Shown here in pieces: positions 15,287 to 64,000 of a stretch of 64,000 bases of DNA (positions are counted from its first letter, which is position 1; the number at the start of each line of letters is the position of its first letter). The notes under the pieces were generated by a model. It ran no database searches and was not told where the DNA came from. It saw nothing but the letters and a program-made list of their open reading frames with translations. This stretch comes from Mesosutterella porci (GTDB lineage Bacteria > Pseudomonadota > Gammaproteobacteria > Burkholderiales > Burkholderiaceae_F), in the NCBI RefSeq assembly GCF_022134585.1, contig NZ_JAKNCT010000004.1, forward strand, positions 153,255 to 217,254, in the 5' to 3' direction. The position numbers and the translations under genes were made by a program.

Positions 15287-15317
15287 AAAAAAAGAGCCGC
15301 AGTTTTGTCTGCGGCTC
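15287..15317 (-). terminator. Intrinsic terminator upstream of the AbrB gene
   Basis: GAGCCGCAG (15294-15302) and CTGCGGCTC (15309-15317) form a perfect stem. The run of seven A at 15287-15293 gives a T-tract on the minus strand. Confidence 0.75.
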
Positions 15318-25273: not shown

Positions 25274-26025
25274 CGTCCGCCGCTCCTGATTCTGGCCGAA
25301 GCGAGGCTCAGAAGCGCCTGAAGCGCTGCGTCGGCCGCCACGCCGAGGACCGCGATCGTAATGATGCCCACGAAGACCGCATCAGTCTTCGAGAGCTCCG
25401 CTGATTCGCTGATGAGAAAGCCCAGCCCCGAGGACGAGGCGATGAGCTCCGCGCCCACCAGAGCCCTCCAGCTGTAGCCGAAGCCGAGCCGCAGGCCCGT
25501 GAGGATTCCCGGCAGCGACGCGGGCAGCGTGAGGCAGCGGAAGCGCTCGAAGGGTGAGAAATGCAGCAGCTGCGCCACTTCCTTAAGTCCTGGATCCACG
25601 CTCCGCACAGCGGAGAGCGCGTTCATATAGACGGGAAAGAAGCTTGCGAGGAAAACAATCGCAATCTTCGGGGCCTCGTCGATCCCGAGCCACAGGATGA
25701 GCAGCGGCACAAGCGAGAGCGGCGGGGTCACCCGCAGTGCCTCGAGCAGGAGGCTGCCCGCGTGGCGCGCGTTCTCGTGGCCCGCGAGGAAGACCCCGAG
25801 CCCGACGCCGAGCAGCGCCGAAAGTACGAATCCGGTGAAGGCGCGCCGGGCCGAGGAGGCGATGTGCGCGGCAAGCGTCCCGTCAGAGGCGAGCGCGCAG
25901 AAGGCCGCGAAGACCGATTCGGGCGTGGGTAGCAGGATCGCGGGGATGCGGCCGCTGTGCGAAGCCCCCTCCCAGAGGGCGAAAAGCAGCGCCGGAAGCA
26001 CGAGATAGAGAAGCCTGCGCGGCAT
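25270..26025 (-). CDS. ABC transporter permease (SsuC/TauC-like)
   Basis: The 251-residue inner-membrane permease has about six helices and the EAA loop seen in SsuC/TauC (VDPGLKEVAQLLHFSPFERF, then ASLPGILTGLRLGFGYSW). It is the first gene of the three-gene operon. Its start codon lies 20 bp from a Fur-box-like sequence, so the operon is probably derepressed when iron is low; that is inferred from the site alone. Confidence 0.9.
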   Translation of the reverse strand: MPRRLLYLVLPALLFALWEGASHSGRIPAILLPTPESVFAAFCALASDGTLAAHIASSARRAFTGFVLSALLGVGLGVFLAGHENARHAGSLLLEALRVTPPLSLVPLLILWLGIDEAPKIAIVFLASFFPVYMNALSAVRSVDPGLKEVAQLLHFSPFERFRCLTLPASLPGILTGLRLGFGYSWRALVGAELIASSSGLGFLISESAELSKTDAVFVGIITIAVLGVAADAALQALLSLASARIRSGGR

Positions 26026-29605: not shown

Positions 29606-29649
29606 CTATTTCAAAAGTGGTAGATCAAACGGCATTTGACGTCCGTCAG

Positions 29650-29717
29650 ACTACGTAGTGGTTGATCGGCAGAACAATGTAAGCCATCAGGAGCCGCCCC
29701 CATAGGAAGACCTATGG
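29650..29717. promoter_or_regulatory. Candidate operators between sensor kinase and aconitase genes
   Basis: Two palindromes lie in the divergent promoter region: ACTACGTAGT (29650-29659), and CCATAGG-aaga-CCTATGG (29700-29706 and 29711-29717). Either could bind the adjacent FixJ-type regulator; this is inference from position and symmetry. Confidence 0.45.
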
Positions 29718-29814
29718 CCGAACAGCGCCGGAGATGATCCAGATTTTCACAGAAAAAGAGCGTGGCCAGGAGCCCGGACAAAAGGCGATCCGCCCGCTTT
29801 CAGGAGAACATCAG

Positions 29815-32226
29815 ATGGAAGGCAAGAAGAATTTCCAGTTGTCGCGCCGCACCCTGCTCAAGGATACAGCGATCGGTGCGGCCGGTGTAAGCGCGATGTC
29901 GCTGCCGGGCCTCGCTTCGGCCAAGGCGTCGTCCGCCGCCGGCAAGAAGGCCGCGCAGGCCTCCACGGCCAACATCCGCGATTTCGCGATGATCAAGGCG
30001 TTCTACCGCAATTATCCGTCCAGTCTCGCCGCGGTCCGCGCGAAGCTCAACCGCCCCCTCACGCTCTCCGAGAAGATTCTCTACACCCATCTTTACGATC
30101 CGAAGAACATTCAGGAATACAAGCGCGGCGCCTCCTACGCGGAGTTCAGGCCTGACCGCGCCGGGACCCACGACATCGGCGGCCCCATGGCCATCCTGCA
30201 GTTCATGACCTCGGGGCGCGACCGCATCGCGCTGCCCGCCGCGATGGTCTGCGACCACCTTGTCACCGCGAACGCCGGCGCCCGCAAGGACATCCTCTTC
30301 GCCGATCAGTTCAACAAGGAGACCTACGACTTCCTGCGCGACGTTTCGCGCCGCTACGGCTTTGACTTCTGGCCCGCGGGCTCGGGCATCTGCCATCAGG
30401 TCTTCCTCGAGAACTACGACTTTCCGGGCGGCATGATGCTCGTTACCGACTCGCACACCCCGACCGCCTGCGGCCTGGGGATGCTTGCGATCGGCGTGGG
30501 CGGCGCCGACCTAGTCGATGCCCTGATGGGCACCGAGTGGGAACTCAAGATGCCGAAACTGATCGGCGTGAAGCTCACCGGGCACCTCCAGGGATGGGCT
30601 TCGCCTAAGGACGTGATCCTGAAGCTGGCCGGCATCCTCTCCACCAAAGGCGGTACGAACTGCGTGATCGAGTACTTCGGCGACGGCGCCGACACGCTCT
30701 CCGCGACCGGCAAGGCCACGATCGGCAACATGGGCGCTGAAGTGGGCTCGACTTCCTCGGTCTTCCCCTACGATTCCCACATGAAGTCCTATCTCCAGGC
30801 GACCGGCCGCGCGGCCGTGGCTTCGCTGGCCGACGGCGTCGCCAAGGACCTGCACGCCGATCCCGAGGTGCTCGCGCACCCCGAAAAGTTCTTCGACCGC
30901 GTGGTCGAGATCAACCTCTCCGAACTCACCCCCTACATCAACGGGCCGCTCTCTCCCGACGCCGCGATGCCGATCGACAAGGTGGGCGAGACGGTGAAGT
31001 CGAAGGGCCTGCCTCAGAACATCGAGGTGGCGCTCGTCGGCTCCTGCACCAATTCCTCCTACGAGGACTTCACCCGCGCGGCTTCGATCGCACGCCAGTG
31101 CCTCGACAAGGGCGTGAAGATCAAGACCCCGCTCATCGTCGTGCCCGGCTCCGTGCGCATCCGCGAGACCCTCAAGCGCGACGGCATCCTGCAGACCTTC
31201 GAGAAGCTCAACGCCACCGTGATGACCACCGCCTGCGGCCCCTGCATCGGGCAGTGGAAGCGCCACATCGGCGATCCTTCGCAGAAGAACACCATCATCG
31301 AGTCGTTCAACCGCAACTTCGCCGGCCGCAACGACGGCAACAAGAAGACGCAGGCGTTCCTCGCCTCCCCTGAAATGGTAGTCGCGATGGCCATCGAAGG
31401 CGATATGGGCTTCAACCCCCTGAAGAACACCGTCACCGGCGCAAACGGAGCGAGCTTCAAGCTGGCCGCCCCGACCGGGGAGGAGCTGCCGAAGAAGGGC
31501 TTCGCCACCAACGTGAAGGGCTGCGTCATCCCGGATTTCAAGAAGATTGAAATCAAAGTGAGCCCGAACGCCGAGCGCATTCGCCTGCTCACCCCGTTCG
31601 CGGCCTGGGACGGCAAGGACTTCGTGGATCTGCCGCTGCTCATCAAGGCGAAGGGCAAGTGCACGACCGACCACATCTCCCCGGGGGGAAAGTGGCTGCC
31701 TTACCGCGGCAACATCGACCGCATTTCCGACAACCTGCTCGAGCGCGCCGTGAACGCCTTCAACGGCCGCAGCCAGAGCGTCTGGAACGTCGTGAACAAG
31801 GACTACGAGACCCCGGCGAAGACGGCCCGGCTCTATAAGAACAAGGGCATTCACTCCGTGATTGTCGGCGACGACAATTACGGCGAGGGCTCTTCCCGCG
31901 AACACGCCGCCATGGAGCCGCGCTATCTCAACGTCTCTGTGGTCCTGGCCAAGAGCCTGGCCCGAATCCATGAATCGAACCTCAAGAAGCAGGGCATTCT
32001 CGCGCTGACTTTCGTAAACCCGAAGGACTACGACAAGATCCGTGAAAAGGACCGGATCTCCGTGCTGGGCCTGAAAGAGCTCGCCCCGGGCAAGACGGTC
32101 ACCGTGGTCTGCAAGCACGAGGACGGCACCGAGGACCGCTTCCAGGCTGCGCACTCCTACAACGAGAAACAGCTGTCCTGGTTCCGCGCGGGCTCGGCCC
32201 TGAACGCGATGAAGAAGGCCGCCTGA
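29815..32226 (+). CDS. Aconitate hydratase (mitochondrial-type) with twin-arginine export signal
   Basis: The start at ATG 29815 follows CAGGAG at good spacing. The first 35 residues are a Tat signal (QLSRRTLLKDTAIGAAG, hydrophobic run, then GLASAKA). The rest is a full-length aconitase of the mitochondrial type: VCDHLVTAN with the Asp-His pair, GICHQVFLENYDFPGG, TDSHTPTACGLGMLAIGVGG, and cluster Cys in LVGSCTNSSYEDF and TTACGPCIGQWKR. NRNFAGRND, CTTDHISPGGKWLPYRG and NYGEGSSREHAAMEPR are also present. All active-site motifs are kept, so it should interconvert citrate and isocitrate using a [4Fe-4S] cluster, apparently outside the cytoplasm. It diverges from a TtrSR-like system. Ordinary aconitases are cytoplasmic. 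Confidence 0.92.
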   Translation: MEGKKNFQLSRRTLLKDTAIGAAGVSAMSLPGLASAKASSAAGKKAAQASTANIRDFAMIKAFYRNYPSSLAAVRAKLNRPLTLSEKILYTHLYDPKNIQEYKRGASYAEFRPDRAGTHDIGGPMAILQFMTSGRDRIALPAAMVCDHLVTANAGARKDILFADQFNKETYDFLRDVSRRYGFDFWPAGSGICHQVFLENYDFPGGMMLVTDSHTPTACGLGMLAIGVGGADLVDALMGTEWELKMPKLIGVKLTGHLQGWASPKDVILKLAGILSTKGGTNCVIEYFGDGADTLSATGKATIGNMGAEVGSTSSVFPYDSHMKSYLQATGRAAVASLADGVAKDLHADPEVLAHPEKFFDRVVEINLSELTPYINGPLSPDAAMPIDKVGETVKSKGLPQNIEVALVGSCTNSSYEDFTRAASIARQCLDKGVKIKTPLIVVPGSVRIRETLKRDGILQTFEKLNATVMTTACGPCIGQWKRHIGDPSQKNTIIESFNRNFAGRNDGNKKTQAFLASPEMVVAMAIEGDMGFNPLKNTVTGANGASFKLAAPTGEELPKKGFATNVKGCVIPDFKKIEIKVSPNAERIRLLTPFAAWDGKDFVDLPLLIKAKGKCTTDHISPGGKWLPYRGNIDRISDNLLERAVNAFNGRSQSVWNVVNKDYETPAKTARLYKNKGIHSVIVGDDNYGEGSSREHAAMEPRYLNVSVVLAKSLARIHESNLKKQGILALTFVNPKDYDKIREKDRISVLGLKELAPGKTVTVVCKHEDGTEDRFQAAHSYNEKQLSWFRAGSALNAMKKAA

Positions 32227-53264: not shown

Positions 53265-53542
53265 GTGGCAGATGCCCGGGTGATGCGCAGCCTCGGCTTT
53301 TCACTTTCCCACATCAAGGCCTTAAAGGGAGTTTCGTACCGCGGACAGCTTGAAGCACTCAAGGAGTGCGGAAAGGACATCGAGAAGAAAATAAAGGAAC
53401 TTTCCATACGGCTTGAACGGCTGCGGGAAGTGGAGTCGTTCCTGTCCAAATGCGCGTTGTGCGACGGGGTCGTCGAAGATGTCGTCCGTCCTCCGATTCA
53501 CAGTCTTTATACTTTCGGGCGGGACCGGGATTACAAGATGAG
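53265..53542 (+). pseudogene. MerR-type regulator remnant truncated by R element
   Basis: The frame contains the second half of a MerR DNA-binding domain (MRSLGFSLSHIKALKG) and a dimerisation coiled coil (IEKKIKELSIRLERLREVES). The N-terminal helix-turn-helix is missing. The 3' end is replaced by element R1, where the codons ATTRYIV belong to R. It marks the host DNA on the left edge of the R array. Confidence 0.6.
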
Positions 53543-53882
53543 GGCAACAACTAGGTATATTGTTTGATAGATATTCTTAATTAGATGAATTTAAAGTAAA
53601 TATTCGATATTACATCGCCAAAATGGCTATGGAAATAACTTCATTTCCGGCCTGTTTTATGTATCTGGCAGCTTGAATTGAACGTATGCCGATTGCAAAT
53701 CTTTAAAAATCAATCAGTTGTGCAAGATAATCTTTTCGTTTCATGTGTTTTCCTGTACAAATGAGGGAAGCAGAGTGGGAAAAGAATTTATTTCCGGGAT
53801 GTTTTAAGGAGAGGTTTTCTTAATTTTGTTTTATTATCAGTTAATTAGAATTAACTATCAAGCAAGTATCCTATCTGTCGGC
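53543..53882 (+). repeat. R1: 340-bp AT-rich element, full copy
   Basis: R1 runs from GGCAACAACTAGG to CTATCTGTCGGC. Ends are imperfect inverted repeats (TAGGTATATTGTTTGATAG against TAGGATACTTGCTTGATAG on the other strand). Two internal symmetric motifs of the form GGAAAT...ATTTCC lie roughly 90 bp from each end. There is no open frame of note. Copies R1-R3 share orientation and length (340 bp) and differ at a few per cent of positions by eye. Confidence 0.9.
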
Positions 53883-53887
53883 ATAAT

Positions 53888-53914
53888 AAAAAAGCGCCCT
53901 GTTTCCAGAGCGCT
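53888..53914 (-). terminator. Terminator of cassette A exported-protein gene
   Basis: On the minus strand, AGCGCTCTG-gaaa-CAGGGCGCT is followed by a T-run that leads straight into the ATG of truncated gene P. Cassettes B and C have the same layout. Confidence 0.85.
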
Positions 53915-53934
53915 CCGTAAGCTAAATTTTTATT

Positions 53935-54237
53935 TCACCTGCAGCCGTTTTTGTCGCAATCATATATTATGCCGCGGCGAGAATCCCAAAGTCTGTACCG
54001 ATCCCCATCCCGGTTAAGAACCGTGTAATCCGTTGGACTCGATTCTTTTTCCTGCGGCGCTGACGTTTCTTTATCGAGCTCAGTTAATTTGATTTTTTCT
54101 GGCTTTAAGGCCCGTACAACCCAACCGCTCGGAGAAACATAAATGCCGTTTTTATCGAATTTGATCTGGTCAGCCGCTAACGCAGGCACCGATGCGGCAA
54201 AGCACATCAGCAAAACAAGCAGCTTTTTCATGGCCAT
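53935..54237 (-). CDS. Small exported protein, cassette A (moron-like)
   Basis: The 100-residue protein has a clear Sec signal (KKLLVLLMCFAASVPALAA). The mature part is about 79 residues. Its first 15 mature residues (DQIKFDKNGIYVSPSGW) and its end (YDCDKNGCR, with a likely Cys-Cys bond) match the cassette C protein, while the middle differs greatly. An AAAGGAGAT site and a TAATATATT -10-like box precede it, and its own terminator follows. It lies between pieces of Mu-like genes N and P. A periplasmic role such as superinfection exclusion is a guess from position and size. Confidence 0.8.
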   Translation of the reverse strand: MAMKKLLVLLMCFAASVPALAADQIKFDKNGIYVSPSGWVVRALKPEKIKLTELDKETSAPQEKESSPTDYTVLNRDGDRYRLWDSRRGIIYDCDKNGCR

Positions 54238-54290
54238 CTCCTTTCCCCTCAGAAATATATTAGTCCCGAGGGGCGGAAAAGACTGAAAAA

Positions 54291-54497
54291 TTATGTGCGC
54301 AAAAGTTTCAGCGTCCTGGCCGGTACAAAGGCCGGACGCCGGATGTTATTGCGCTCCACGATCTCAGAGTCCCGGGTGGCGTCCCCGTAGTAGTCGTAGG
54401 CCAGCACGAGGGCCGGTATGACTTCCGACGGAGTATAGTCAATCAGCCTTGCCCGGCTCTCGGCCCGGGTCGTGAGATCGCCCCAGACGGCCGCCCT
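54291..54497 (-). pseudogene. Mu-like gene N (DNA circulation protein) 3' fragment, cassette A
   Basis: It encodes the last 68 residues of an N protein, from AAVWGDLTTRAES through VIPALVLAYDYYGDATRDSE to FVPARTLKLLRT. It is nearly identical to cassette C over the shared part. The 5' side is cut at R2. Confidence 0.8.
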
Positions 54498-54837
54498 GGC
54501 AACAACTAGGTATATTGTTTGATAGATATTCTTAATTAGATGAATTTAAAGTAAATATTAGATATTACATCGCCAAAATGGCTATGGAAATAACTTCATT
54601 TCCGGCCTGTTTTATGTATCTGGCAGCTTGAATTGAATGTATGCCGATTGCAAAATATTAAAAATCAATTAGTTGCACAAGATAATCTTTTCGTTTCATG
54701 TGTTTTCCTGTACAAATGAGGGAAACAGAGTGGGAAATGAATTCATTTCCGGGATGTTTTAAGGAGAGGTTTTCTTAATTTTGTTTTATTATCAGTGAAT
54801 TAGAATTAACTATCAAGTAAGTATCCTATCTGTCGGC
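54498..54837 (+). repeat. R2: 340-bp AT-rich element, full copy
   Basis: Same ends and length as R1. It contains an 18-bp perfect palindrome GGAAATGAATTCATTTCC in its right half. Its left end abuts gene N of cassette A and its right end abuts gene P of cassette B. Confidence 0.92.
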
Positions 54838-55053
54838 AATAAAGCCAGCCAATAACGTATCTGATCCTATTTTTACAACCGCCTCCAACCCCTCTTCTAT
54901 GCCTTCGCAAAGACTGGCCCTATTAGATGTTCTAGCAACTCCTAACTGACACACTCGCACCAAGGAATTAACGCTCACTTCTATCTGAACCGATGTCCAA
55001 CCAAGGTACTTTTTCCCGTTGACATACAGGGTTACTTCATTTTCTGGGGCCAT
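54838..55053 (-). pseudogene. Mu-like gene P 5' fragment, cassette B
   Basis: About 72 residues of a Mu gpP-like baseplate/tail protein (VTLYVNGKKYLGWTSVQIEV, then GSDTLLAGFI) before the sequence passes into R2. The ATG follows the T-run of the cassette terminator directly. Confidence 0.8.
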
Positions 55054-55082
55054 AAAAAAACGCCCCGATTTCTCAGAGCGCC
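55054..55082 (-). terminator. Terminator of cassette B exported-protein gene
   Basis: On the minus strand, CGCTCTGA-gaaa-TCGGGGCG with a T7 run. It has the same position and shape as in cassettes A and C but a different sequence. Confidence 0.8.
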
Positions 55083-55105
55083 CTTAAGAATTCACAGAAA
55101 TAAGA

Positions 55106-55468
55106 TTATTCGGGAAGTTTGATATTTCGCGTTTTCGGATCTACAAGAATACGTTGCTTCGTAACGGGATTCACATATTCCTTGTATCTTCCGGACCATC
55201 CGTTATCGTGAAAATGATTTTCTCTTGCCAGGCGATCCTGTTCGTCCTTTGCCTTCCTTGCTGCTTCATCTGCTTTTATTTTTTCCAGTGACTTAGAGTT
55301 AATAACGATGTGTTTTACCTCTTTGCTTGGAGGATTCTGGACATAAATAAGTTCTTGATGCTTAATACCTTCCATATCAACCCATTCTGTTGGGATTGTA
55401 TAGTCGGCAAACGCGGTCGCGCTTAAGAACACCCCCAGCACCGCAGCAACAGCAAGAATCTTTTTCAT
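55106..55468 (-). CDS. Small exported protein, cassette B (moron-like, unrelated sequence)
   Basis: The 120-residue protein starts at ATG 55468 (an in-frame GTG at 55477 overlaps the N stop). The Sec signal is KKILAVAAVLGVFLSATAFA. The mature protein has TEWVDMEGIKHQELIYVQNP, a charged helical middle (KIKADEAARKAKDEQDRLAR) and a Tyr/Val-rich end (NPVTKQRILVDPKTRNIKLP). It shows no clear similarity to the cassette A and C proteins, yet occupies the same N-P slot. Unlike A and C there is no separate -10 box; it is coupled to gene N. Function unknown. Confidence 0.78.
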   Translation of the reverse strand: MKKILAVAAVLGVFLSATAFADYTIPTEWVDMEGIKHQELIYVQNPPSKEVKHIVINSKSLEKIKADEAARKAKDEQDRLARENHFHDNGWSGRYKEYVNPVTKQRILVDPKTRNIKLPE

Positions 55469-55473
55469 GGCAG

Positions 55474-55625
55474 TCACCTGCTCAAAAGCTTCAGCTCTCT
55501 GGCGGGAACAAACCCGCCGTGCCGGATGCCGTTGCGGTCGATAATCTCTTTCTCCCTGGCGGCATCCTCATAAAAATTATAGGCAATCACGAGGGCCGGC
55601 TGCACTTCCGGAGGTGTAACAGTTA
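55474..55625 (-). pseudogene. Mu-like gene N 3' fragment, cassette B
   Basis: It encodes the last 49 residues (TPPEVQPALVIAYNFYEDAA, GFVPARELKLLSR), clearly homologous to but diverged from A and C. It begins at the R3 boundary. Confidence 0.78.
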
Positions 55626-55965
55626 GGCAACAACTAGGTATATTGTTTGATAGATATTATTAATTAGATGAATTTAAAGTAAATATTCGATATTACATCG
55701 CCAAAATGGCTATGGAAATAACTTCATTTCCGGCCTGTTTTATGTATCTGGCAGCTTGAATTGAATGTATGCCGATTTCAAATCGTTAAAAATCAATTAG
55801 TTGCGCAAGATAATCTTTTCATTTCATCTGTTTTCCTGTACAAATGAGGGAAACAGAGCGGGAAATGAATTCATTTCCGCGATGTTTTAAGGAGAGGTTT
55901 TCTTAATTTTGTTTTATTATCAGTGAATTAGAATTAACTATCAAGCCAGTATCCTATCTGTCGGC
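55626..55965 (+). repeat. R3: 340-bp AT-rich element, full copy
   Basis: Same ends, orientation and length as R1 and R2. Its right end abuts GC-rich host DNA next to the YgiW-like gene, with no obvious target duplication. Confidence 0.92.
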
Positions 55966-55992
55966 CCGGGCGGCCTTCGTGCGCTTCCCGCG

Positions 55993-56439
55993 CTACAGAC
56001 TGTGGGGAGGCGGGGGCGGCGTGAAGCCGTGCAGCACCTGCAGCCCCTTCACCTCGATCTCGTTTTGCCTGCCGTGCCTTGCGTCCACCTCGCCCCAGAC
56101 GCGTACCCGGGTGCGCTCGTCGACCTGGTGCCCGCGGAAGAGGTCATCGTCAATCTCTGCGACCACTTCGCCCGTCCGGTCACGAAAAACGTAGTGCTCG
56201 TGGCGCAGCCGCCTGACGACATACCCCTCGAGCTCCACCCGCTGGTCTTCACGCCCGTGGCCGATCACTTCGCGAACGGTCGTGAGGGCCCCGTGGTGAT
56301 GGTGGCGGTGTGCGCCCTGCACGGCGGGCGGCGGAGCCGGGCGGTGGGCGCCCGGGCCCGTGAACTGCGCGTAGGCGCCCGGGGCGGCGAGCGCAAGCGA
56401 GGCCGCGGCGATCCAAAGAAGCTTGGCTGAGGTTTTCAT
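55993..56439 (-). CDS. YgiW/YdeI-type periplasmic OB-fold (BOF) protein
   Basis: The start at ATG 56439 follows GGAAGGAGAAT and gives a Sec signal (KLLWIAAASLALAAPGAYAQ). The mature protein opens with FTGPG, has a His-rich linker, and then the BOF domain: VELEGYVVRRLRHEHYVFRD, TGEVVAEIDDDLFRGHQV and RVRVWGEVDARHGRQNEIEV. The family is small periplasmic and stress-linked, with no known enzyme activity. The frame is open upstream into a broken regulator gene, but the ribosome-binding site and signal peptide favour 56439. Confidence 0.85.
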   Translation of the reverse strand: MKTSAKLLWIAAASLALAAPGAYAQFTGPGAHRPAPPPAVQGAHRHHHHGALTTVREVIGHGREDQRVELEGYVVRRLRHEHYVFRDRTGEVVAEIDDDLFRGHQVDERTRVRVWGEVDARHGRQNEIEVKGLQVLHGFTPPPPPHSL

Positions 56440-56467
56440 GGGATTCTCCTTCCGAACAAATCCTTGC

Positions 56468-56679
56468 ACGGGAAGATTGCCGAGGCGGCTTCCGATCCGC
56501 TCCTCCCAGAGCCTCACCCGCCCCCAGAGGAAGCGGTAGCTCACCCCCAGCGCCTTGGATGTCGCGGTAATCGAGCCGATGCGCTCGATCGCAGACAGGA
56601 GGTCGGGAAGCTCAGAAGACACCACGTCATCGGGCCGCTCGCCGCTGCTGAGCTCGTAGGTGAGATGGATCTTGAACAT
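56468..56679 (-). pseudogene. ModE-type helix-turn-helix regulator fragment
   Basis: From ATG 56679 the frame encodes LPDLLSAIERIGSITATSKA and LGVSYRFLWGRVRLWEERIG, a ModE/LysR-type DNA-binding domain. After GSRLG the sequence departs from the family and runs in frame into the BOF gene leader. Only the N-terminal domain is left. Confidence 0.65.
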
Positions 56680-56790
56680 AAACTCTGCGCTCCTGTTCCG
56701 GAATGCCCCCAAGCCGGCTTCTGACCATATTATCCGATTGAACGGGCCGTCCCTGCATAAGGGCAGGTCCTGCCGGAGAAAATCCAAAGT

Positions 56791-56822
56791 CCCCGATACT
56801 CATATAGTCCTTTGCAGGGCTA
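56791..56822. repeat. Interrupted copy of the REP-like palindrome
   Basis: CCCCGATACTCATATAG (56791-56807) matches the left arm of the palindrome at 45425, and AGGGCTA (56816-56822) begins the right arm. The remaining TATGAGTATCGGGG is absent because IS110-like DNA starts there. Confidence 0.75.
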
Positions 56823-56842
56823 ACGAGAGAAAAGTCAAAAAA

Positions 56843-56878
56843 GACAACGCCTCAGAAGATAAGTTCTGAAGCATTGTC
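56843..56878 (+). ncRNA. Candidate bridge-RNA hairpin of the IS110 remnant
   Basis: GACAA...TTGTC encloses GC-c-TCAGAA/TTCTGA-a-GC around a GATAAG loop, a 36-base hairpin in the non-coding 5' part, where IS110-group elements encode their bridge RNA. The location is suggestive; no guide loops were assigned. Confidence 0.35.
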
Positions 56879-56939
56879 AGCGACGAAAAGCTCCGTTAAA
56901 TTTTAAGTTTTCTCAATAGCTTAAAAAGGGAGTTTCGTC

Positions 56940-57972
56940 ATGACTAAGACTACCACAGATTCCTGTCCCACCATCGACCGCACCAATTTCATGGCATCGA
57001 TCTTCATTCCAACAATATCTTCGTCTGCGTCCTGGTCAACACAATCGATCCCCAATCGGGTCAGCTGGGTTGCCGTGCCATCTATAAGAGAGAGGAAAAT
57101 CCCGTTGGAGCCAGGGCCGCAGCATGTTGCTGAGGCCCTGGAGCCTTACTGTTCGGTTCCTCACGTTGCGACAGTTGAGTCAACCTACAACTGGTATGGA
57201 TTGGCCGATTTGTTTGAATCCCGCGGATGGATATTGAAATTGGCTGACCCCACTACAGTCAAAAAATTCAAGGCTAAATTTTCGGATGACAGATCTGATG
57301 CTGAATTTTTGGCAGACCGTCTGCGGCTGAATGACTTGAAAACAACTGAAATCATTCCTCGAAACGCCCGGTCTTTCAAGGATTTGGTTCGTCTTCGCAA
57401 CTCGTTGATCCAGGATCGATCGCGGTACGCCGTCATATTGATCAACATGATCAACAATCAGTGCTGCGAGCGTATCAATCGTACGGCTATCGTCCATTGG
57501 GCTGAAGAACTTCAACGCAGCGGTCAGCTTCCCGAGAAGCTGACCGCTGCTTTACACAATAATTGCATCCTCAGGAAGGTAGAGGTGAATTTGAGAATGT
57601 TTACCTCCTGCTCCGAAGAAATCAAACGCATCGGGGCGGCCATCGTGGAAACAGCCCGAAAGGCTCCGCAGCACTGCCATCAGTATCTGAAAATTCTTCA
57701 GAGCATCAAAGGCTGCGGAGAAGTCATCTCCACTGTGGTGGCTTCAGAAATTCATGATATCCGGCGATTTCGTAATGCCAAAAATTTTGTGTCCTGCTGC
57801 AGACTCGCTCCTACAGAGCGTTTGTCGAATGGAAAAGTCAAAGGAGAAGGGAACGCTAAAAACGGTAACGCTTATCTCAGCTGGGCTTTTACCGAACTGG
57901 CCAATCTTGTGGTTCGCTTCAATCCGCCGGCCAAGAAAAAATTTGACAGACTGCTTTCTAAACGGAACGGCT
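56940..57972 (+). pseudogene. IS110 transposase, frameshifted and 3'-truncated
   Basis: The catalytic DEDD N-terminus (HGIDLHSNNIFVCVL at about 56990-57035) is in a different frame from both the ATG-proximal codons and the rest of the gene, so two frameshifts flank it. The remainder reads well: FSDDRSDAEFLADRLRLNDL, then the C-terminal transposase_20 domain ILQSIKGCGEVISTVVASEI and NGKVKGEGNAKNGNAYLSWA. The end is lost after FNPPAKKKFDRLLSKRNG. Confidence 0.85.
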
Positions 57973-58127
57973 TGAGGTGCCGGGCAAGCGACACGGCGGA
58001 GCGGAACCCGGCCGGGCGGCAGCCCGCGGTGAAGCCGTTTCGCCGGGCGGGGAGCTCCCGGCTCAGTGGGAAACAGGCCTGCGGCCTCCCCCGATGAAAG
58101 GAACGCCGCGGGGAGGCCGGCCTGCCG

Positions 58128-59615
58128 TTACTTCCCGGCCTTCTTCGCCGCGACCGCCTGGTCGGCAGCCACGTGGCCGAAGGCAGCCGCCTTGCTGAAC
58201 GCGGTGCCAGTCATGTAGGCCGCGCCGTGGACGCCGCCCAGCATTTCGCCCGCGGCATAGAGCCCCTTGATCGGCTGGCCGTAGACGTCGATCACGCGCG
58301 CCGTCGGGTCAATGCGCACGCCGCAGTAGGTGGCGATCATCGCCGCCGTGCAGGGCATGACGACCCAGGGACCCTCGGTGAGCTTCACCGGGGTGCCGAC
58401 CCTGCCCGAGAGGTGCTTGCGGCCGAGCGGGTCCTCGCCCTTGGGGGCGAGCTCGTTGTATTCCTTGATCGTCTGGGCGAGCGCCGCGGGCGGGATCCCG
58501 GCCTTCTCGGCGGCTTCCTCGATCGTTTTGCCGACGAAGCCGTAGGGGGTCGTGCCCTTGCTCTCGACGTCCTTCCACATCTTGATCTCGCGGCGGTCCT
58601 TCGCCATGCCTTCCTTCCTCACCGCGTTGTCAAAGACGGTGAAGGTCTTCGCCTCGGGCTGCACGAGGGCGGCGTCGCCGATCAGCTTGTAGGAGAGCGA
58701 CTCGTTCACGAAGCGCTTGCCCGCCTTGTTCACGATGATGCCGCCGTTGTAGTAGATGTAGCTCTTCTCGCTCGCGTTGCCGCCCGGCACGAAGCCGTAG
58801 GTCGCCTTCACGTAGTTAGTGTCAAGCACGTCGGCGCCGAGGGAGAGCGCCATGATGAGACCGTCGCCCGTGTTGCCCACGCCCGACACCGAGCGCGCCT
58901 TCTTCATCGCGGGCACGTACTTCCCGAGCAGCTTCTGGTTGTTCGCGAAGCCGCCGCAGGCAAGCAGCACCCCGTAGCGGGCGCGGAAGGTCCTCACCTT
59001 GCCGTTCACCCTGGCGCGCACGCCCTCGACCCGTTCCTTCTGCGCGTTCCAGAGCAGCCGCTCGACCGGGGCGTTCGTGAGGATCTTCGCACCCTTCTTC
59101 TCGGCGTAGTCCCTGTAGAACTCCACGACCTTGTCGGGGGTGAAGGCGTGGACGCGCGGGACGCTCATGCCGCCGGCGGCGTGGACGTCGTGCGCCTTGA
59201 CGCCGTGGGCGAGCAGCCAGTCATACTCGCGGTTGGCGGCCTTGATGTAGGCGCGGACGACGTCAGGGTCATTCTCGCCCTTGCCGGTCTTGATCATGTC
59301 GTCGAAGAAGAGCTCCTCGCTGTCCTTGATCCCGGCTTCCTTCTGCATCGCGGTGCCGGAGGCGGCCCAGCTGCCGCCGCAGATCGCGGAGGACCCGCCC
59401 ACGAAGGCGAGCTTCTCGAGCACAAGCACCTTCAGGCCCGCCTCAGCGCCGTGGCTCGCGGCCGACAGCCCCGCGTTGCCCGCGCCGATCGCGATGAAGT
59501 CATAGGTTTCGTCAAACTTGGCAGGCGCGTTTGTCGGGACGGCGAACGCCTCGGAGGCGCCCATGGACGCGGCGGCTGCAAGGCCGGCCTTCAGGAAGTT
59601 TCTGCGGTTGATCAT
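58128..59615 (-). CDS. Tat-exported FAD-dependent reductase, atypical active site
   Basis: The start at ATG 59615 with GGAGAG upstream gives a Tat signal, INRRNFLKAGLAAAASMGAS. The FAD site is IAIGAGNAGLSAASHGAEAG. The fumarate reductase Arg after GKRFVNE is Tyr (GKRFVNESLSY). The C-terminal site reads GGVHGAAYMTGTAF, keeping His but not the NR Arg. The true acceptor is probably not fumarate. It diverges from a PhnD-domain sensor kinase gene, so the kinase may sense its substrate. No heme-binding CxxCH is present; electrons must come from a partner elsewhere. Confidence 0.87.
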   Translation of the reverse strand: MINRRNFLKAGLAAAASMGASEAFAVPTNAPAKFDETYDFIAIGAGNAGLSAASHGAEAGLKVLVLEKLAFVGGSSAICGGSWAASGTAMQKEAGIKDSEELFFDDMIKTGKGENDPDVVRAYIKAANREYDWLLAHGVKAHDVHAAGGMSVPRVHAFTPDKVVEFYRDYAEKKGAKILTNAPVERLLWNAQKERVEGVRARVNGKVRTFRARYGVLLACGGFANNQKLLGKYVPAMKKARSVSGVGNTGDGLIMALSLGADVLDTNYVKATYGFVPGGNASEKSYIYYNGGIIVNKAGKRFVNESLSYKLIGDAALVQPEAKTFTVFDNAVRKEGMAKDRREIKMWKDVESKGTTPYGFVGKTIEEAAEKAGIPPAALAQTIKEYNELAPKGEDPLGRKHLSGRVGTPVKLTEGPWVVMPCTAAMIATYCGVRIDPTARVIDVYGQPIKGLYAAGEMLGGVHGAAYMTGTAFSKAAAFGHVAADQAVAAKKAGK

Positions 59616-59627
59616 TTGTATTCTCTC

Positions 59628-59700
59628 CACAGTGGTTGGCGGCGGGACAAAAGCTGTCTGCGCCCACTGTGATTTGTAATGACCGGGGTGCGCGCGCACC
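59628..59700. promoter_or_regulatory. Candidate operators between reductase and sensor kinase genes
   Basis: CACAGTGG (59628-59635) and CCACTGTG (59664-59671) form a spaced perfect inverted repeat. GGTGCGCGCGCACC (59687-59700) is a 14-bp perfect palindrome. Both are in the divergent promoter region and could bind the linked response regulator. Confidence 0.45.
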
Positions 59701-59785
59701 TTGCCGCATGTCAACGGGGCGCGACGAAAAGGCGCATCCGGCGGGCGACTTGTGCCAACATTTGGGAAAAACAGGATCTATTCCC

Positions 59786-61612
59786 ATGCATCGCGCCAGA
59801 CAATCCATGCTCCGAGCGGTAGCCTGCGCCCTCGCCGCGCTCCTCGCGCTGGCCGCGCACGCGGCTCCCCCGGCAGCGGAGGAGCCCGCCCCCGTCACCC
59901 TCTACGCCAACGAGTTCCTGCTGCCCGGCCTCAAGATGGAGTCTGCCGACCGCACGGTCGAGGCGATCGCGCGGGCGGTCGCCCCCCGGCCCCTGAAGAC
60001 CGTCGTCGTCGGGATCGAGGAACTCGACGAGGCGGTGCGGCAGAGGAAGGCCGACATCGTGATCGCGGGCGCCGCAATCTACAGGCGCCACGTCCAGAAC
60101 GGCATGCGCGACATCGCGACCCTCGTCACCGAGCTTCAGCCCGACCCCGACCACGCCGTGGGCGGGCTCATTGTCACCCGCGCCGACCGCTCCGACATCA
60201 GCACGCTCGCCGACCTCAGGGGCAAGTCGCTCGCCGTCAACCACCCGGTCGGCTTCCAGGGGATCCTTGTCCTCAAGAAGGACCTCGCCGACGCGGGCTA
60301 CAACCCGGAGCAGTTCTTTTCCCGGATCGAGTATTACGGGCTCGAGCCCGGGCCCCGGCTCAACGCGGTCAGAAACGGGCTGGTCGACGCGGCGACGATC
60401 AACGTCTGCTACGCCGAGCGGATGGAGCGCGCCGGGGCCAACGTGCTCGAGGGGCTCAAGACGGTCGCGGAGCGCAAGAACCCCGAGGCGCGCTGCCGCG
60501 CGAGTACAAGCCTCTACCCGAACTGGAGCCTGCTCGTGTCGCCGAACCTCGACGCCGGCACGATCGTGCGCATCGCCTCGGCCGTGCACACGATGCCGCC
60601 CGGCGCGGACGGCCACCAGTGGACGATCGCGAGCGACTTCAGCCGCGCCGACGACCTCTACCGCACGCTCAGGATGGGGCCTTACGCGTACCTGCGCTCC
60701 TGGACGCTCGAGCGGATCCTCGCCGAGTACGGGACGCTCGTCGCCTTCGCGCTGCTCGCGCTTGCGGGGCTCGTGCTCCACTATGTGCGCACGCAGCGCC
60801 TCGTCGAGATCCGCACGCGGCAGCTGCGACTCGCGCTCGAGCGCGAGAAGGAGCTCTCCGAGGCGGCAGGCGAGGCGACCCGGCGCTACGAGACCGCGCG
60901 GCGCATCGCCACCGTCTCCCAGATGTCCAGCCTCGTCGCCCACGAGATCAGCCAGCCGCTTGCCGGGATCCTGCTCTACTGCCGGGGGATGCGGGAGCTC
61001 ATCGCCCGCAAGGCTGAGGCGCACGGCTTTTCACCGGAGCTGCTCACCGAGACGCTCGACAAGATCGAGGCCCGGGCAAGGAAGGCCAGCGACGTCGTGA
61101 AGGCGGTCCGCGGCTATGCGAAGTCCCAGGCGCGCCCCGTCACGAAGCTCGGGCTCTGCGCCCTCGTGAGCAAGACCGCGGAGAGCTTCGCGCGGCTCGG
61201 ACAGGCGGCTCCGGACACAATCTCGCTCGAGCTCCCTAGGGAGGAGCTCTGGGTCGACGGGGTCGCGATCGAGCTCGAGCTCATGCTTGCCAACCTGGTG
61301 AAAAACAGCCTGGAGGCAACCTCCAAGGTCCCGCGGCCGAAAGTCTCCATCCAGCTTGAGAAGACGCCTGGGACAAAGGCGCGGATCCGCGTGCTCGACA
61401 ACGGCCCCGCCGTGTCCGACGGACTGTTTGAACAGATCAACCGGCCGCTCAGCTCCAGCAAGCCCGAGGGGCTGGGGCTCGGGCTGTCGATCGTCCGGGG
61501 GATCGCCGAGGGACACGGCGGCACGGTCTCGGTGAGCCGCACCGAGGCGGGAAGCCTCGGTGTCGAGATCCTGCTGCCGCTTTCCGCCCCTGCGGAGGAC
61601 ACCCATGCTTGA
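59786..61612 (+). CDS. TtrS-like sensor histidine kinase with PhnD-type periplasmic sensor
   Basis: From ATG 59786 the protein has about 608 residues: signal peptide (AVACALAALLALAAHA), PhnD/TtrS-like sensor domain (VTLYANEFLLPGLKMESADR, LADLRGKSLAVNHPVGFQGI), one membrane helix (TLVAFALLALAGLVLHYV), and a HisKA phospho-acceptor in SLVAHEISQPLAGILLYCRG. The ATPase boxes are LANLVKNSLEAT, RIRVLDNGPAVS and GLGLGLSIVRGIAEGHGG. It resembles the kinase at 27776 in every part. It is coupled to the next response regulator gene (8-bp overlap) and diverges from the exported reductase. Confidence 0.9.
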   Translation: MHRARQSMLRAVACALAALLALAAHAAPPAAEEPAPVTLYANEFLLPGLKMESADRTVEAIARAVAPRPLKTVVVGIEELDEAVRQRKADIVIAGAAIYRRHVQNGMRDIATLVTELQPDPDHAVGGLIVTRADRSDISTLADLRGKSLAVNHPVGFQGILVLKKDLADAGYNPEQFFSRIEYYGLEPGPRLNAVRNGLVDAATINVCYAERMERAGANVLEGLKTVAERKNPEARCRASTSLYPNWSLLVSPNLDAGTIVRIASAVHTMPPGADGHQWTIASDFSRADDLYRTLRMGPYAYLRSWTLERILAEYGTLVAFALLALAGLVLHYVRTQRLVEIRTRQLRLALEREKELSEAAGEATRRYETARRIATVSQMSSLVAHEISQPLAGILLYCRGMRELIARKAEAHGFSPELLTETLDKIEARARKASDVVKAVRGYAKSQARPVTKLGLCALVSKTAESFARLGQAAPDTISLELPREELWVDGVAIELELMLANLVKNSLEATSKVPRPKVSIQLEKTPGTKARIRVLDNGPAVSDGLFEQINRPLSSSKPEGLGLGLSIVRGIAEGHGGTVSVSRTEAGSLGVEILLPLSAPAEDTHA

Positions 61613-62270
61613 CTACGGAAAATCCCACTACGTCGTGCGGCTGGTCGACGACGACGAGGAGCTCCTTGACGCGCTCGGCTTCGCGATCCGCATCGACGGC
61701 TGGTCGGTGAAGACCTACGGGTCGGCGGACGCCTTCCTCGAGGGCGACGACTTCGACGCCCCGGGCTGCCTCGTGCTCGACGTACGGATGCCCGGACGAT
61801 CGGGCACCGAGCTCCAGGAGATCCTTGCCGCGGACGGCTGCCCGCTACCGGTGATCTTCCTCACCGGGCACGGCGACATGCGGATAGCTATCGGGGCGTT
61901 CCGCAACGGCGCCTACGACTTCCTGCTCAAACCCGTCGACCCCGGGGAGTTGCTCGCCGCGATCGGCAAGGCGGTCGCCAAGCACGAGGCGGCACTCAAG
62001 GAAAGGGAGAAGGCGTCGGCGCTCGCGCGCTACCGCACGCTCACCGAGCGCGAAAAAGTGATCCTGCGCGACCTCCAGTCAAACCTCTCGAGCAAGCAGA
62101 TCGCCGAGCACCTTGGCGGCAGCTCGCGCACGATCCAGCGCCACCGCCAGAACGCACTCCGCAAGATCGGGCTGCGGCGCACCGAGGACATCCGCGGGTT
62201 CCTCGAGCAAGTGCGGCGGGAGGAAGAGGAAGAAATGAACCGCCCCCTGCCCGGGATGCGGGAGGGATGA
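61605..62270 (+). CDS. FixJ/TtrR-type response regulator
   Basis: The start at ATG 61605 overlaps the kinase stop. The 221-residue protein has a receiver domain (VVRLVDDDEELLDALG, phospho-acceptor in CLVLDVRMPGRSGTEL, FLTGHGDMRIA, YDFLLKPVDPGE). Its LuxR-type DNA-binding domain reads LTEREKVILRDLQSNLSSKQ, IAEHLGGSSRTIQRHRQNAL. It is a paralogue of the regulator at 27141. It probably activates the divergent exported reductase gene. Confidence 0.92.
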   Translation: MLDYGKSHYVVRLVDDDEELLDALGFAIRIDGWSVKTYGSADAFLEGDDFDAPGCLVLDVRMPGRSGTELQEILAADGCPLPVIFLTGHGDMRIAIGAFRNGAYDFLLKPVDPGELLAAIGKAVAKHEAALKEREKASALARYRTLTEREKVILRDLQSNLSSKQIAEHLGGSSRTIQRHRQNALRKIGLRRTEDIRGFLEQVRREEEEEMNRPLPGMREG

Positions 62271-62342
62271 CGTCCACTCCTTTGCTGCACTCCAGGCCGG
62301 GGCAATCACCGAAATGCCTCGCACGCTAACCGGACAGCAACA

Positions 62343-62681
62343 GCCGACAGATAGGATACTTGCTTGATAGCTAATTCTAATTCACTGATAATAAAACAAA
62401 ATTAAGAAAACCTCTCCTTAAAACATCCCGGAAATGAATTCATTTCCCACTCTGTTTCCCTCATTTGTACAGGAAAACAGATGAAATGAAAAGATTATCT
62501 TGCGCAACTAATTGATGTTTAACGATTTGCAATCGGCATACATTCAATTCAAGTTGCCAGAACATAAAACAGGCCAGAAATGAAGTTATTTCCATAGCCA
62601 TTTTGGCGATGTAGTATTGAATATTTACTTTAAATTCATCTAATTAAGAATATCTATCAAACAATATACCTTGTTGTTGCC
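62343..62681 (-). repeat. R4: 339-bp AT-rich element, full copy in inverted orientation
   Basis: Reverse complement of R1-R3 with a 1-bp deletion, running GCCGACAGATAGG to TTGTTGTTGCC. Its P-side end lies 72 bp from the response regulator stop and its N-side end abuts gene N of cassette C. Confidence 0.92.
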
Positions 62682-62946
62682 CGACTCCGAGATGCTGAAG
62701 ACCGAGGACGATGACGTCTACCGGGCGCTGGTCAATGCCAGGGCGGCCGTCTGGGGCGATCTCACGATCCGGGCTGAGAGCCGGGCGAGGCTGATTGACT
62801 ACAGTCCGTCGGAAGTCATGCCAGCCCTCGTTCTGGCCTATGACTACTACGGAGACGCCACCCGGGACTCTGAGATCGTGGAGCGCAATAACATCAGGCG
62901 TCCGGCCTTTGTACCGGCCAGGGCGCTGAAACTTTTGAGCGCATAA
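62682..62946 (+). pseudogene. Mu-like gene N 3' fragment, cassette C
   Basis: About 87 residues of the N protein end: EDDDVYRALVNARAAVWGDL, VMPALVLAYDYYGDATRDSE, and FVPARALKLLSA. The 5' cut is further upstream than in cassette A, though the two are nearly identical where they overlap. Confidence 0.82.
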
Positions 62947-62959
62947 TTTTTCAGTCTTT

Positions 62960-62999
62960 TCCGCCCCTCGGGGCTAATATATTTCTGAGGGGAAAGGAG
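62960..62999 (+). promoter_or_regulatory. Leader of the cassette C gene with promoter-like -10 and hairpin
   Basis: CCCCTCGGGG, then TAATATATT (62975-62983) and GAGGGGAAAGGAGAT. The -10-like box is kept word for word in cassette A, and CCCCTC can pair with GAGGGG around it. No good -35 is seen. It would let the exported protein be expressed without the phage tail operon. Confidence 0.45.
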
Positions 63000-63293
63000 A
63001 TGGCCATGAAAAAGCTGCTTGTTTTGCTGATGTGCTTTGCCGTAGCGGTGCCGGCGACAGCGGCTGACCAGATCAAATTCGATAAAAATGGGGTTTATGT
63101 TTCGCCTGAGGGGTGGGTTTTTAAAGTTGGTCCGACGGAAAGAGGGTGGACAATTTCCAACGATTCAGCCCCCGAGTCGGAGGAGAGTTCCCCGGCGGAT
63201 TACACTGTTATTTCTCGAGATGGCGATAAAGTAACTTTACGGAACAATAGAAATTACAAAACCTATGATTGCGACCGAAATGGCTGCAGGTAA
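63000..63293 (+). CDS. Small exported protein, cassette C (moron-like)
   Basis: The 97-residue protein has the same signal peptide start as the cassette A protein (KKLLVLLMCFAVAVPATAAD). The first mature residues (QIKFDKNGVYVSPEGWVF) and the last nine (YDCDRNGCR) are shared with A. The stretch between is short and different (KVGPTERGWTISNDSAPESE). GGAAAGGAG precedes the ATG. A terminator follows at once. Constant ends with a variable middle suggest diversifying selection on a small periplasmic protein, as for phage exclusion or receptor-masking proteins; this is inference. Confidence 0.82.
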   Translation: MAMKKLLVLLMCFAVAVPATAADQIKFDKNGVYVSPEGWVFKVGPTERGWTISNDSAPESEESSPADYTVISRDGDKVTLRNNRNYKTYDCDRNGCR

Positions 63294-63315
63294 TTAATAT
63301 TTAATTCTGATGCGG

Positions 63316-63342
63316 AGCGCTCTGGAAACAGGGCGCTTTTTT
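63316..63342 (+). terminator. Terminator of cassette C exported-protein gene
   Basis: AGCGCTCTG-gaaa-CAGGGCGCT then T6, with the gene P start codon four bases later. Identical stem to cassette A. Confidence 0.88.
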
Positions 63343-63345
63343 ATT

Positions 63346-63793
63346 ATGGAACAGACTGTAGTAAAGCTTATCGTCGGTGGAAAGGAATACCGTGCATGGC
63401 AGTCTGTCAGCATATCCGCCAAGCTTTTGAGCTACGCCCGGACGTTTACTGTTGGGTTTACGCGAGAAAACAATGCTGCTGGGCAACCCGGAATAGATAT
63501 TAAGATCGGGGATTTTGTTCAGTTAAAAATAGATGATGATTTAGTATTAACAGGCTATATTACAAAGACCACTTTTTCTTATTCTGACAAGAGTATTTCG
63601 CTTAGTATTGAAGGCGCAAGCAAAACTGTTGATTTGGCCGAATGCTATTTGGCTGTTTCTGATGTAAAACAATTTTCAAATTTGTCTGTTTCAAAAACAC
63701 TCCAAGTCTTGGCAAAGCCTTACGGAATTTCAGTAATAAAAAGAACAGAAAAAGATCCAAAAGCGAATATAGCTATAGCGGCAACAGATTCTA
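63346..63793 (+). pseudogene. Mu-like gene P 5' fragment, cassette C
   Basis: About 149 residues of a gpP-like tail/baseplate protein (VVKLIVGGKEYRAWQSVSIS, DDLVLTGYITKTTFSYSDKS, ISLSIEGASKTVDLAECYLA). The frame passes into R5 and stops at 63825. It is the longest P piece of the three. Confidence 0.83.
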
Positions 63794-63873
63794 GCCGACA
63801 GATAGGATACTTGTTTGATAGTTAATTAAAACTCACTGATAATAAAACAAAATTAAGAAAGCCTCTCCTTAAA
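63794..63873 (-). repeat. R5: partial R element (80 bp)
   Basis: GCCGACAGATAGGATACTTG through AAGCCTCTCCTTAAA matches the P-side quarter of R; after 63873 the sequence is unrelated. Confidence 0.85.
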
Positions 63874-63937
63874 CGTAAATTCCGCAAAATTTATAACTAG
63901 TTAAGAGCAAAAATATTTTTGATTTCAGTCAATTAAT

Positions 63938-63960
63938 CCCTCGAAAGAGGGTTTATTTTT
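63938..63960 (+). terminator. Intrinsic terminator
   Basis: CCCTC-gaaa-GAGGG (63938-63951) followed by TTTATTTTT. AT-rich promoter-like DNA (TATAATTATAACTATAT) follows to the window end. Confidence 0.7.
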
Positions 63961-64000
63961 CGGAGAAAACACAGTATAATTATAACTATATAGAATTGAT

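What the first reader, a model, noticed from the sequence alone, without database searches (positions are those of the whole stretch)
53543..63873. Array of 340-bp R elements enclosing three phage-derived cassettes of constant layout
Seen directly: four full R copies and one partial copy enclose three units, each ordered gene N 3' fragment, small exported-protein gene, terminator, gene P 5' fragment. In all three the N side meets the GGCAACAAC end of R and the P side the GTCGGC end, whatever the strand. The N and P cuts differ in every unit (N about 68, 49 and 87 residues; P 1, 72 and 149 residues), and unit B is diverged from A and C. Simple tandem duplication cannot explain this. It looks like repeated capture or mobilisation of one phage locus (the slot between N and P) by R. 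No recombinase gene lies nearby, so R would be mobilised in trans.
Basis: partly seen in the sequence, partly recalled or inferred. Interest (0 to 1): 0.93.

Follow-up and report, generated by a model that had tools for sequence, protein, structure and literature searches.

The report
Giant-repeat archive of foreign DNA pieces
On a large bacterial plasmid, near-identical 340-base repeats separate gene-sized pieces of viral and bacterial DNA, and on a sister plasmid the gene of a stand-alone CRISPR-type DNA integrase (Cas1) lies beside a related array, so the arrays are likely a CRISPR-like store that would keep whole genes instead of short tags.

Summary
The array is real. R (340 bp) has 11 full copies and one split copy in this genome, all on one contig, likely a circular plasmid of about 217 kb (Rep3, ParA). 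The colinear 232-kb plasmid of Mesosutterella sp. AGMB02718 has six more. R is AT-rich with imperfect inverted ends. Between copies lie pieces of 0.5-10 kb with sharp ends and no target duplication of 6 bp or more: Mu-like N-moron-P (four versions), two unrelated terminase small subunits, phage polyvalent proteins, and bacterial DNA. On the sister plasmid a diverged repeat family (R2) also bounds phage pieces. Its last copy lies 23 bp (plus a later IS1634) before a stand-alone cas1, with no short-repeat CRISPR and no Cas12c on the plasmid. In four of five related loci a CRISPR array fills that place. The piece next to cas1 is 3,966 bp matching another species' genome (95-97%), ending exactly at two identical R2 copies. 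Best reading: a Cas1-driven archive with giant repeats and gene-sized spacers. Capture of foreign DNA is shown; copying of the repeat at insertion and the role of Cas1 are inferred. Composite transposition with homologous shuffling is the main rival.

The parts
53543..53882 (+). R copy 1 (340 bp repeat), joined to a MerR-like gene of the plasmid backbone
   Evidence: same copy and flanks in G001:C2:106095-106434; MerR-DNA-bind only below its Pfam cut-off
53883..54497 (-). unit A: Mu-like N 3' piece, small exported-protein gene (53935-54237), terminator, first residue of P
   Evidence: same unit in G001:C2:105480-106094 at 98.6% including both R copies
54498..54837 (+). R copy 2
54838..55625 (-). 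unit B: diverged N 3' piece, small exported-protein gene (55106-55477), P 5' piece
55626..55965 (+). R copy 3
55966..62342 (.). bacterial module between inverted R copies, with an IS110-family transposase gene (56940-58097), a FAD-binding oxidoreductase (58128-59714), a histidine kinase (59636-61612) and a response regulator (61560-62270)
   Evidence: both ends meet the GTCGGC end of R
62343..62681 (-). R copy 4
62682..63793 (+). unit C: N 3' piece (87 residues), small exported-protein gene (63000-63293), P 5' piece (149 residues)
63794..63873 (-). first 80 bp of R copy 5, interrupted by an insertion element with CTTAAA on both sides; R goes on at C23 about 125-195, at the other end of the contig
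63874..64000 (.). one end of the insertion element that splits R copy 5; the contig ends inside it

Best explanation
The R repeats are the fixed repeats of a plasmid-borne archive of foreign DNA: kilobase pieces of phage and bacterial DNA sit between them, and they were likely inserted by a stand-alone Cas1 integrase that would copy the repeat at each insertion, as in CRISPR adaptation but with repeats of 330-340 bp and spacers the size of genes. Shown: the repeats, the foreign pieces with sharp ends, one 3,966-bp piece matching another species' genome that ends exactly at two identical R2 repeats, and a cas1 gene with conserved Cas1 core next to that repeat, where most related type V-C-like loci have their CRISPR array. 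Inferred: Cas1 recognises R2 (and R1) as its target; both ends of the incoming fragment are joined to the two ends of one repeat and the gap is filled, so the repeat is doubled; new pieces enter next to cas1; homologous recombination between repeats then reshuffles modules and explains the inversions. Because each piece can carry whole small genes, the likely benefit is keeping useful cargo such as phage accessory genes, rather than making guide RNAs. On the window's own plasmid cas1 was not found, so its array would be a relic, or served in trans by the V-C Cas1 elsewhere in the genome.
Against: Known Cas1 enzymes duplicate about 14 bp (casposase) or 25 bp (V-C) (PMC6977970, part of the discussion read), not 330-340 bp. 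The window's plasmid has the larger R1 array but no cas1 by tblastn. The cas1-R2 adjacency is seen once, and no further genome with this cas1 lineage was found. Neighbouring R1 copies are not clearly more alike than distant ones. R ends resemble the V-C repeats only weakly (p 0.03-0.04 at best of eight comparisons). The IHF-like site of R1 (consensus recalled) is not kept in all copies nor in R2. Some modules (6-10 kb of bacterial genes) are large for such an integrase, and one phage-or-chromosome piece (C23:25545-25959) meets R on one side only. Homologous recombination could also double R2.
Confidence: 0.43

Rival explanations
1. R is a miniature inverted-repeat transposon moved by a transposase elsewhere; pairs of R copies carry phage and bacterial pieces as composite transposons, and homologous recombination between R copies gathered them on one plasmid. 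cas1 is merely another captured gene.
For: Imperfect inverted ends (arms score 33 against a shuffle maximum of 22); AT-rich, many copies; TIME-COMP elements show that miniature elements can mobilise plasmid DNA (PMC4133298, passages read). R copies form a star-like set.
Against: No target duplication of 6 bp or more at any of 20 copies, although TIMEs leave 5-6 bp; no R outside this one plasmid lineage in what was searched; the M capture would need R2 at two sites of a donor genome, and none was found in G003.
Confidence: 0.27
2. R is only a recombination substrate: RecA recombination between its 95-98% identical copies shuffles, inverts and deletes modules, and the first joining of R to foreign pieces was by unrelated rare events.
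For: Chimeric R copies, inverted copies bounding module 55966-62342 and piece F1, and the internal deletion in G001:C2:100929-101119 between two 29-bp internal repeats. One piece (C23:25545-25959) meets R on one side only.
Against: Explains reshuffling but not why nearly all junctions of at least 12 pieces from different sources lie exactly at the R ends.
Confidence: 0.15
3. An integron-like system: the tyrosine recombinase beside the array inserts circular cassettes at R.
For: A XerC-like tyrosine recombinase gene lies a few kilobases from R in both plasmids; R is quasi-palindromic and holds an 18-bp palindrome, with a different palindrome (8-bp arms, 6-bp centre) in the corresponding region of R2b.
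Against: Relatives of this recombinase gene (66-68% DNA) occur in G003 and G004, where no R was found; the integron-integrase model scores 65 against a cut-off of 265; R shows no integron attC core (consensus recalled); fold z-scores are -2.1 for R1 and -0.7 for R2.
Confidence: 0.07
4. One decayed prophage with chance insertions of R.
For: Three units share the N-moron-P order.
Against: Pieces of several unrelated phage kinds and of bacterial DNA lie between copies in two plasmids; the same locus was taken several times with different cuts.
Confidence: 0.02

Closest known systems
CRISPR adaptation of type V-C (Cas1 without Cas2; Cas12c)
   Same: Closest identified loci by Cas1 sequence (45-48% identity); array directly upstream of cas1; foreign DNA between repeats
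   Different: Repeats of 330-340 bp instead of 25; pieces of 0.5-10 kb instead of 17-19 bp; no Cas12c and no short-repeat CRISPR on the plasmid; Cas1 lies on its own long branch
Casposons
   Same: Stand-alone Cas1 relative; casposase can join random DNA to a strongly preferred target (PMC6977970); long inserts
   Different: No polymerase-size ORF in the hub other than three that are something else, no common ends on the inserted pieces, no 14-15 bp duplication; the target itself would be the repeated unit
TIME-COMP and other miniature-element composite transposons
   Same: Short non-coding repeat with inverted ends on both sides of captured DNA
   Different: No target duplications of 6 bp or more; found only on one plasmid lineage; cas1 beside one array; arrays of many different pieces
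Chromosomal integron cassette arrays
   Same: Imperfect palindromic repeats between gene-sized units, recombinase in the neighbourhood
   Different: No integron integrase by model, no attC consensus (recalled), pieces are cut inside genes

Membership tests
CRISPR-Cas type V-C | cas1 of the V-C type | tested here: inconclusive
   45-48% identical to Cas1 of V-C-like loci, but on a separate long branch with P0002 only (support 1.0)
CRISPR-Cas type V-C | short direct repeats with 17-19 bp spacers next to cas1 | tested here: not met
   No 20-mer occurs three times within 400 bp on either plasmid; the C22 locus of G000 has 31 such repeats
CRISPR-Cas type V-C | Cas12c effector | tested here: not met
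   tblastn with the Cas12c proteins of G000 and G023 finds nothing on C2 or C23 at E <= 1; Cas12c confirmed at those two V-C loci
Casposon | Cas1 with the Cas1 fold and conserved core residues | tested here: met
   (that the invariant residues are the active site is recalled)
Casposon | terminal inverted repeats on the inserted DNA and a 14-15 bp target duplication | tested here: not met
   Inserted pieces have no common ends; no flank of 6 bp or more is shared
Casposon | family-B DNA polymerase gene | tested here: inconclusive
   The three ORFs of 480 aa or more at G001:C2:75000-107000 are a phosphoethanolamine-transferase-like protein, the IS1634 transposase and a permease; the rest of the plasmid was not scanned
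MITE / TIME composite transposon | terminal inverted repeats | tested here: met
   R arms score 33 against a shuffle maximum of 22; R2 ends compared by eye
MITE / TIME composite transposon | target-site duplication | tested here: not met
   20 copies, no shared flank of 6 bp or more; three 5-base matches with offsets up to 2, about what chance gives; shorter duplications cannot be excluded
MITE / TIME composite transposon | dispersal in the genome and an autonomous partner | tested here: not met
   All copies in G000 on one contig; no partner found with the R profile in 200 relatives, strict filters
Integron | integron integrase and attC sites | tested here: not met
   XerC-like recombinase, integron model 65 bits against a cut-off of 265; attC consensus compared from recall only
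Mu-like prophage | contiguous phage genome | tested here: not met
   Only N-moron-P pieces between R copies, with pieces of other phages and bacterial genes between them

The most novel reading that the evidence does not exclude
A third way of using Cas1: neither CRISPR memory nor casposon transposition, but a gene archive. A stand-alone Cas1 captures random kilobase fragments of infecting phages and other incoming DNA at a 330-340 bp repeat, copying the repeat each time, so the cell inherits whole phage accessory genes (likely superinfection-blocking morons) and foreign operons. It would be a living intermediate between casposons and CRISPR arrays.
Probability: 0.38. Interest if true: 0.95.

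Novelty: categorically new. Interest (0 to 1): 0.84.

Why it matters
The casposon model of CRISPR origin needs an integrase that places random foreign DNA into a preferred, repeated target. If this Cas1 does that with gene-sized pieces, the missing step can be tested in living strains, and bacteria would have a way of storing whole enemy genes rather than short tags. Even if Cas1 is not the agent, the arrays show repeated capture of the same phage accessory loci with exact ends, including one case whose intact counterpart is held in another species.

Tried and rejected
R as an RNA-bearing element: no Rfam family above its gathering score in 53400-64000; fold z-scores -2.1 and -0.7. R in the phage and plasmid collections: none. 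In IMG/VR: one 16-base hit without further R, and 18 hits of an R2 16-mer with no R profile match. The moron in IMG/VR: no relative. GTDB pattern for the R end: none, but this genome or near ones may be left out. The cas1 lineage elsewhere: two scans with poorly placed patterns and a third found none; none in the plasmid collection; of 399 genomes of the order only V-C-like Cas1 of 43-48% in three. V-C spacers of this genome against both plasmids and 25 phage loci, up to one mismatch: none. PADLOC on nine array and neighbour proteins other than Cas1: none. Unit C in the phage collection: none. Target duplication for a single R: none of 6 bp or more; the shared CGATG at the ends of module C23:16112-25959 is within chance. 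Doubling seen as higher similarity of neighbouring R1 copies: not clear. Similarity of R ends to V-C repeats: only suggestive. Cas2 was not tested by profile; after cas1 there are only ORFs of 45-65 aa. Literature: six searches, of which only the top listings were seen (titles and abstract starts), showed no paper on Cas1 with repeats or spacers of this size; papers outside the open library were not searched.
Full report
Setting. C23 is colinear, mostly at 98-99% with some stretches of 85-94%, with contig C2 (232,325 bp) of a same-genus genome, G001. The alignment passes through the two ends of C2, which indicates that C2 is circular; C23 is then likely the same plasmid opened inside an R copy. 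The plasmid has Rep3 and ParA-type domains. The protein database names the strain with the 232,325-bp contig as Mesosutterella sp. AGMB02718. A paper on strain AGMB02718T reports one circular chromosome of 2,606,253 bp and does not use the word plasmid (PMC11022602, passages found by search); the genome held here has three contigs.

The observation. R has 11 full copies and two partial matches in G000, all on C23. The two partial matches are parts of one R, split by an insertion element with matching ends (22 of 30) and CTTAAA on both sides; the far side is cut again at R position 199, where a segment with a ribosomal-protection-like GTPase gene begins, described only. G001 has six copies at C2:99198-106434, one of them internally deleted. 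Of 150 relatives searched with R as DNA (at most four candidates scored per genome), only G000 and G001 gave more than a match of about 40 bases. Of 200 searched with a profile of R, R2 and R3 (strict filters, at most eight candidates), only these two gave full matches; G097 and G038 gave weak partial ones.

What R looks like. R is 31.5% GC on a plasmid of 60% GC. Its first and last ~115 bases are an imperfect inverted repeat (score 33, shuffle maximum 22). It holds two 29-bp internal repeats around palindromes. The 16 full copies differ from each other by 4-24 positions in a star-like pattern. A second family, R2, has three copies in G001 (about C2:78314-78628, 79196-79525, 83492-83821), 56-58% identical to R end to end. 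The 18-bp palindrome of R has a different palindrome (8-bp arms, 6-bp centre) in the corresponding region of R2b. A third, weaker relative lies at C2:90140-90455, scored only after it was added to the profile, and a 49-bp remnant at C2:77772-77820 (E 0.012).

What lies between the repeats. In G000, of 11 modules, six have phage homology by profile or by alignment to such a piece: units A, B, C; a1 (C23:12475-13945, Terminase_2 small subunit); a2 (14286-15772, PHROG 9880, with PBECR1 just under its cut-off); a4 (29429-30507, Sf6-type small terminase). The others hold bacterial-type genes; one of them ends in a 415-bp piece (25545-25959) that has relatives in G002-G004 and meets R on one side only. 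In G001, of eight modules, five are phage by the same tests (F1, F3, F5, the N-moron-P unit at 77.8 kb, a MuF_C piece), F2 and F4 are unassigned but share a small gene (39% over 90 residues, E 9e-17 for the pair), and one, M, matches another bacterium. Some loci were taken several times: four versions of N-moron-P, and three captures of the same polyvalent-protein region. F1 and a2 are 96% identical but cut 71 and 167 bp apart at their two ends. In IMG/VR relatives the a1 region exists with and without the small gene between terminase small and large subunit (large subunit confirmed in L107: Terminase_3, 2.4e-43), so a1, like the N-P units, is an accessory-gene locus with parts of its neighbours.

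Exact ends. At seven junctions a relative continues past the place where R begins: the TerL side of a1 (six contigs shown), the P side of units A and C (two contigs each), the N side of A (unit C continues), both ends of module M, and the 415-bp piece. The ends of R itself vary by at most two bases. No R copy, and no pair of copies, shares a flank of 6 bp or more on its two sides (20 by 20 flanks, offsets up to 2). So R does not behave like a transposon that leaves duplications of that length; shorter ones cannot be excluded.

The polarity rule. It holds in the three window units. It fails for a1 (upstream gene at the GTCGGC end) and for the N-moron-P unit at G001 77.8 kb. Three of three alike happens in one case of four by chance.

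Cas1. The ORF at G001:C2:85598-86809 contains Cas1: TIGR00287 75.7 bits (cut-off 71.7), Pfam 72.5 (cut-off 22.3), and a model (mean pLDDT 77) that aligns best to Cas1 and casposase structures. E167, H222, D237 and E240 are invariant in 12 of 12 aligned sequences; that such residues form the active site is recalled. An IS1634 (C2:83849-85722, 8-bp duplication ATACATGA) sits 27 bp after R2c and 4 bp before the ATG, so before that insertion R2c and cas1 were 23 bp apart. No CRISPR-like short repeat is on either plasmid, and no Cas12c relative by tblastn. Cas2 was not tested by profile. On the window's plasmid C23 no cas1 was found by tblastn.

Relatives of this Cas1. Of 200 relatives, five others than G001 had a close match (45-48%): G000:C22, G023, G037, G063 and G016. 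In the first four a CRISPR array with a 25-bp repeat and short spacers (17-19 bp where measured, G000) lies about 85-105 bp upstream of cas1; in G016 it lies several kilobases away. Cas12c was tested and found in G000 and G023. In a tree of 120 homologues the plasmid Cas1 and P0002 (71%) form one pair (support 1.0) on a long branch. So the R2 array sits where a CRISPR array sits in most of its closest identified relatives. The weight of this is limited by its being one locus; by chance 0.5-0.9% of the plasmid, or 3-7% of the hub, lies within 25-50 bp of a repeat end.

A capture with its counterpart. Module M (C2:79526-83491, 3,966 bp, beside cas1) is 96.6% and 95.0% identical to two contigs of G003, another species of the genus. 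The homology stops exactly at R2b and R2c, and G003 continues on both sides without R2. G001's own copy, on its 2.33-Mb contig, is only 78-88% identical in the outer parts and 65% in a middle part. R2b and R2c are identical over 330 bp, while R2a is 87%. This is what insertion of a linear foreign fragment with copying of the repeat next to cas1 would leave. Integration of a circle by homologous recombination at R2 would leave the same repeats, but would need R2 already joined to M.

How it likely works. Shown: foreign pieces with exact ends between repeats; cas1 at the repeat. Inferred: Cas1 acts on the two inverted ends of the repeat, joins both ends of a linear fragment there, and repair doubles the repeat; recombination between repeats reshuffles the modules. 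Casposase joins random DNA to a strongly preferred target, and V-C Cas1 works without Cas2 on a 25-bp target (PMC6977970, first part of the discussion and some passages read). Against: the duplications reported there are about 14 and 25 bp, not 330; the window plasmid has no cas1; neighbouring R1 copies are not clearly more alike than distant ones. The main rival is composite transposition of R plus recombination.

Known or new. The arrays fail tested features of CRISPR (short repeats, effector), casposons (end repeats and short duplication), MITE composites (duplication, dispersal) and integrons (integrase type). They work most like CRISPR adaptation or casposase targeting. In the listings of six literature searches no description of such arrays was seen; this covers open-access papers only, and only the top of each listing.

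Noticed in passing
G000:C22:66001-106000 (L158, L159), locus about 81776-88240: The same genome has a type V-C CRISPR locus: Cas1, Cas12c (1,297 aa) and 31 repeats with 17-19 bp spacers; related Cas1 with CRISPR arrays in G023, G037, G063 and G016.
   Followed up: partly
C23:341-2260 (L014): A ribosomal-protection-type GTPase gene (tetracycline-resistance-like, by eye and Pfam domains) lies on a segment that cuts R copy 5; about 2.7 kb of it is 100% identical in G004 and G008. Described only.
   Followed up: no
window 1606-1672 (C23:154860-154926): A weak match to the right end of the R family (E 0.06 and 1.4 with two profiles), with an end like that of R2, present in both plasmids; possibly another diverged repeat end.
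   Followed up: no
G001:C2:89941-90878 (L032, L034): A third R-like element next to a piece similar to the terminase piece a4 (77%) and to an N-tail plus moron, suggesting an older, decayed array.
   Followed up: partly
G001:C2:79526-83491: The captured module M carries metallophosphoesterase-like and phosphoethanolamine-transferase-like genes (below NCBIfam cut-offs).
   Followed up: partly
G001 (strain AGMB02718): The description of the strain reports one circular chromosome, while the held genome has three contigs, one of them this 232-kb plasmid; its homologue C23 carries Rep3 and ParA-type genes.
   Followed up: partly
G003:C86 and C59: The counterpart of module M appears to be interrupted in G003 where the two contigs end, with a 6-base overlap of the two matches, as an insertion element would leave.
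   Followed up: no
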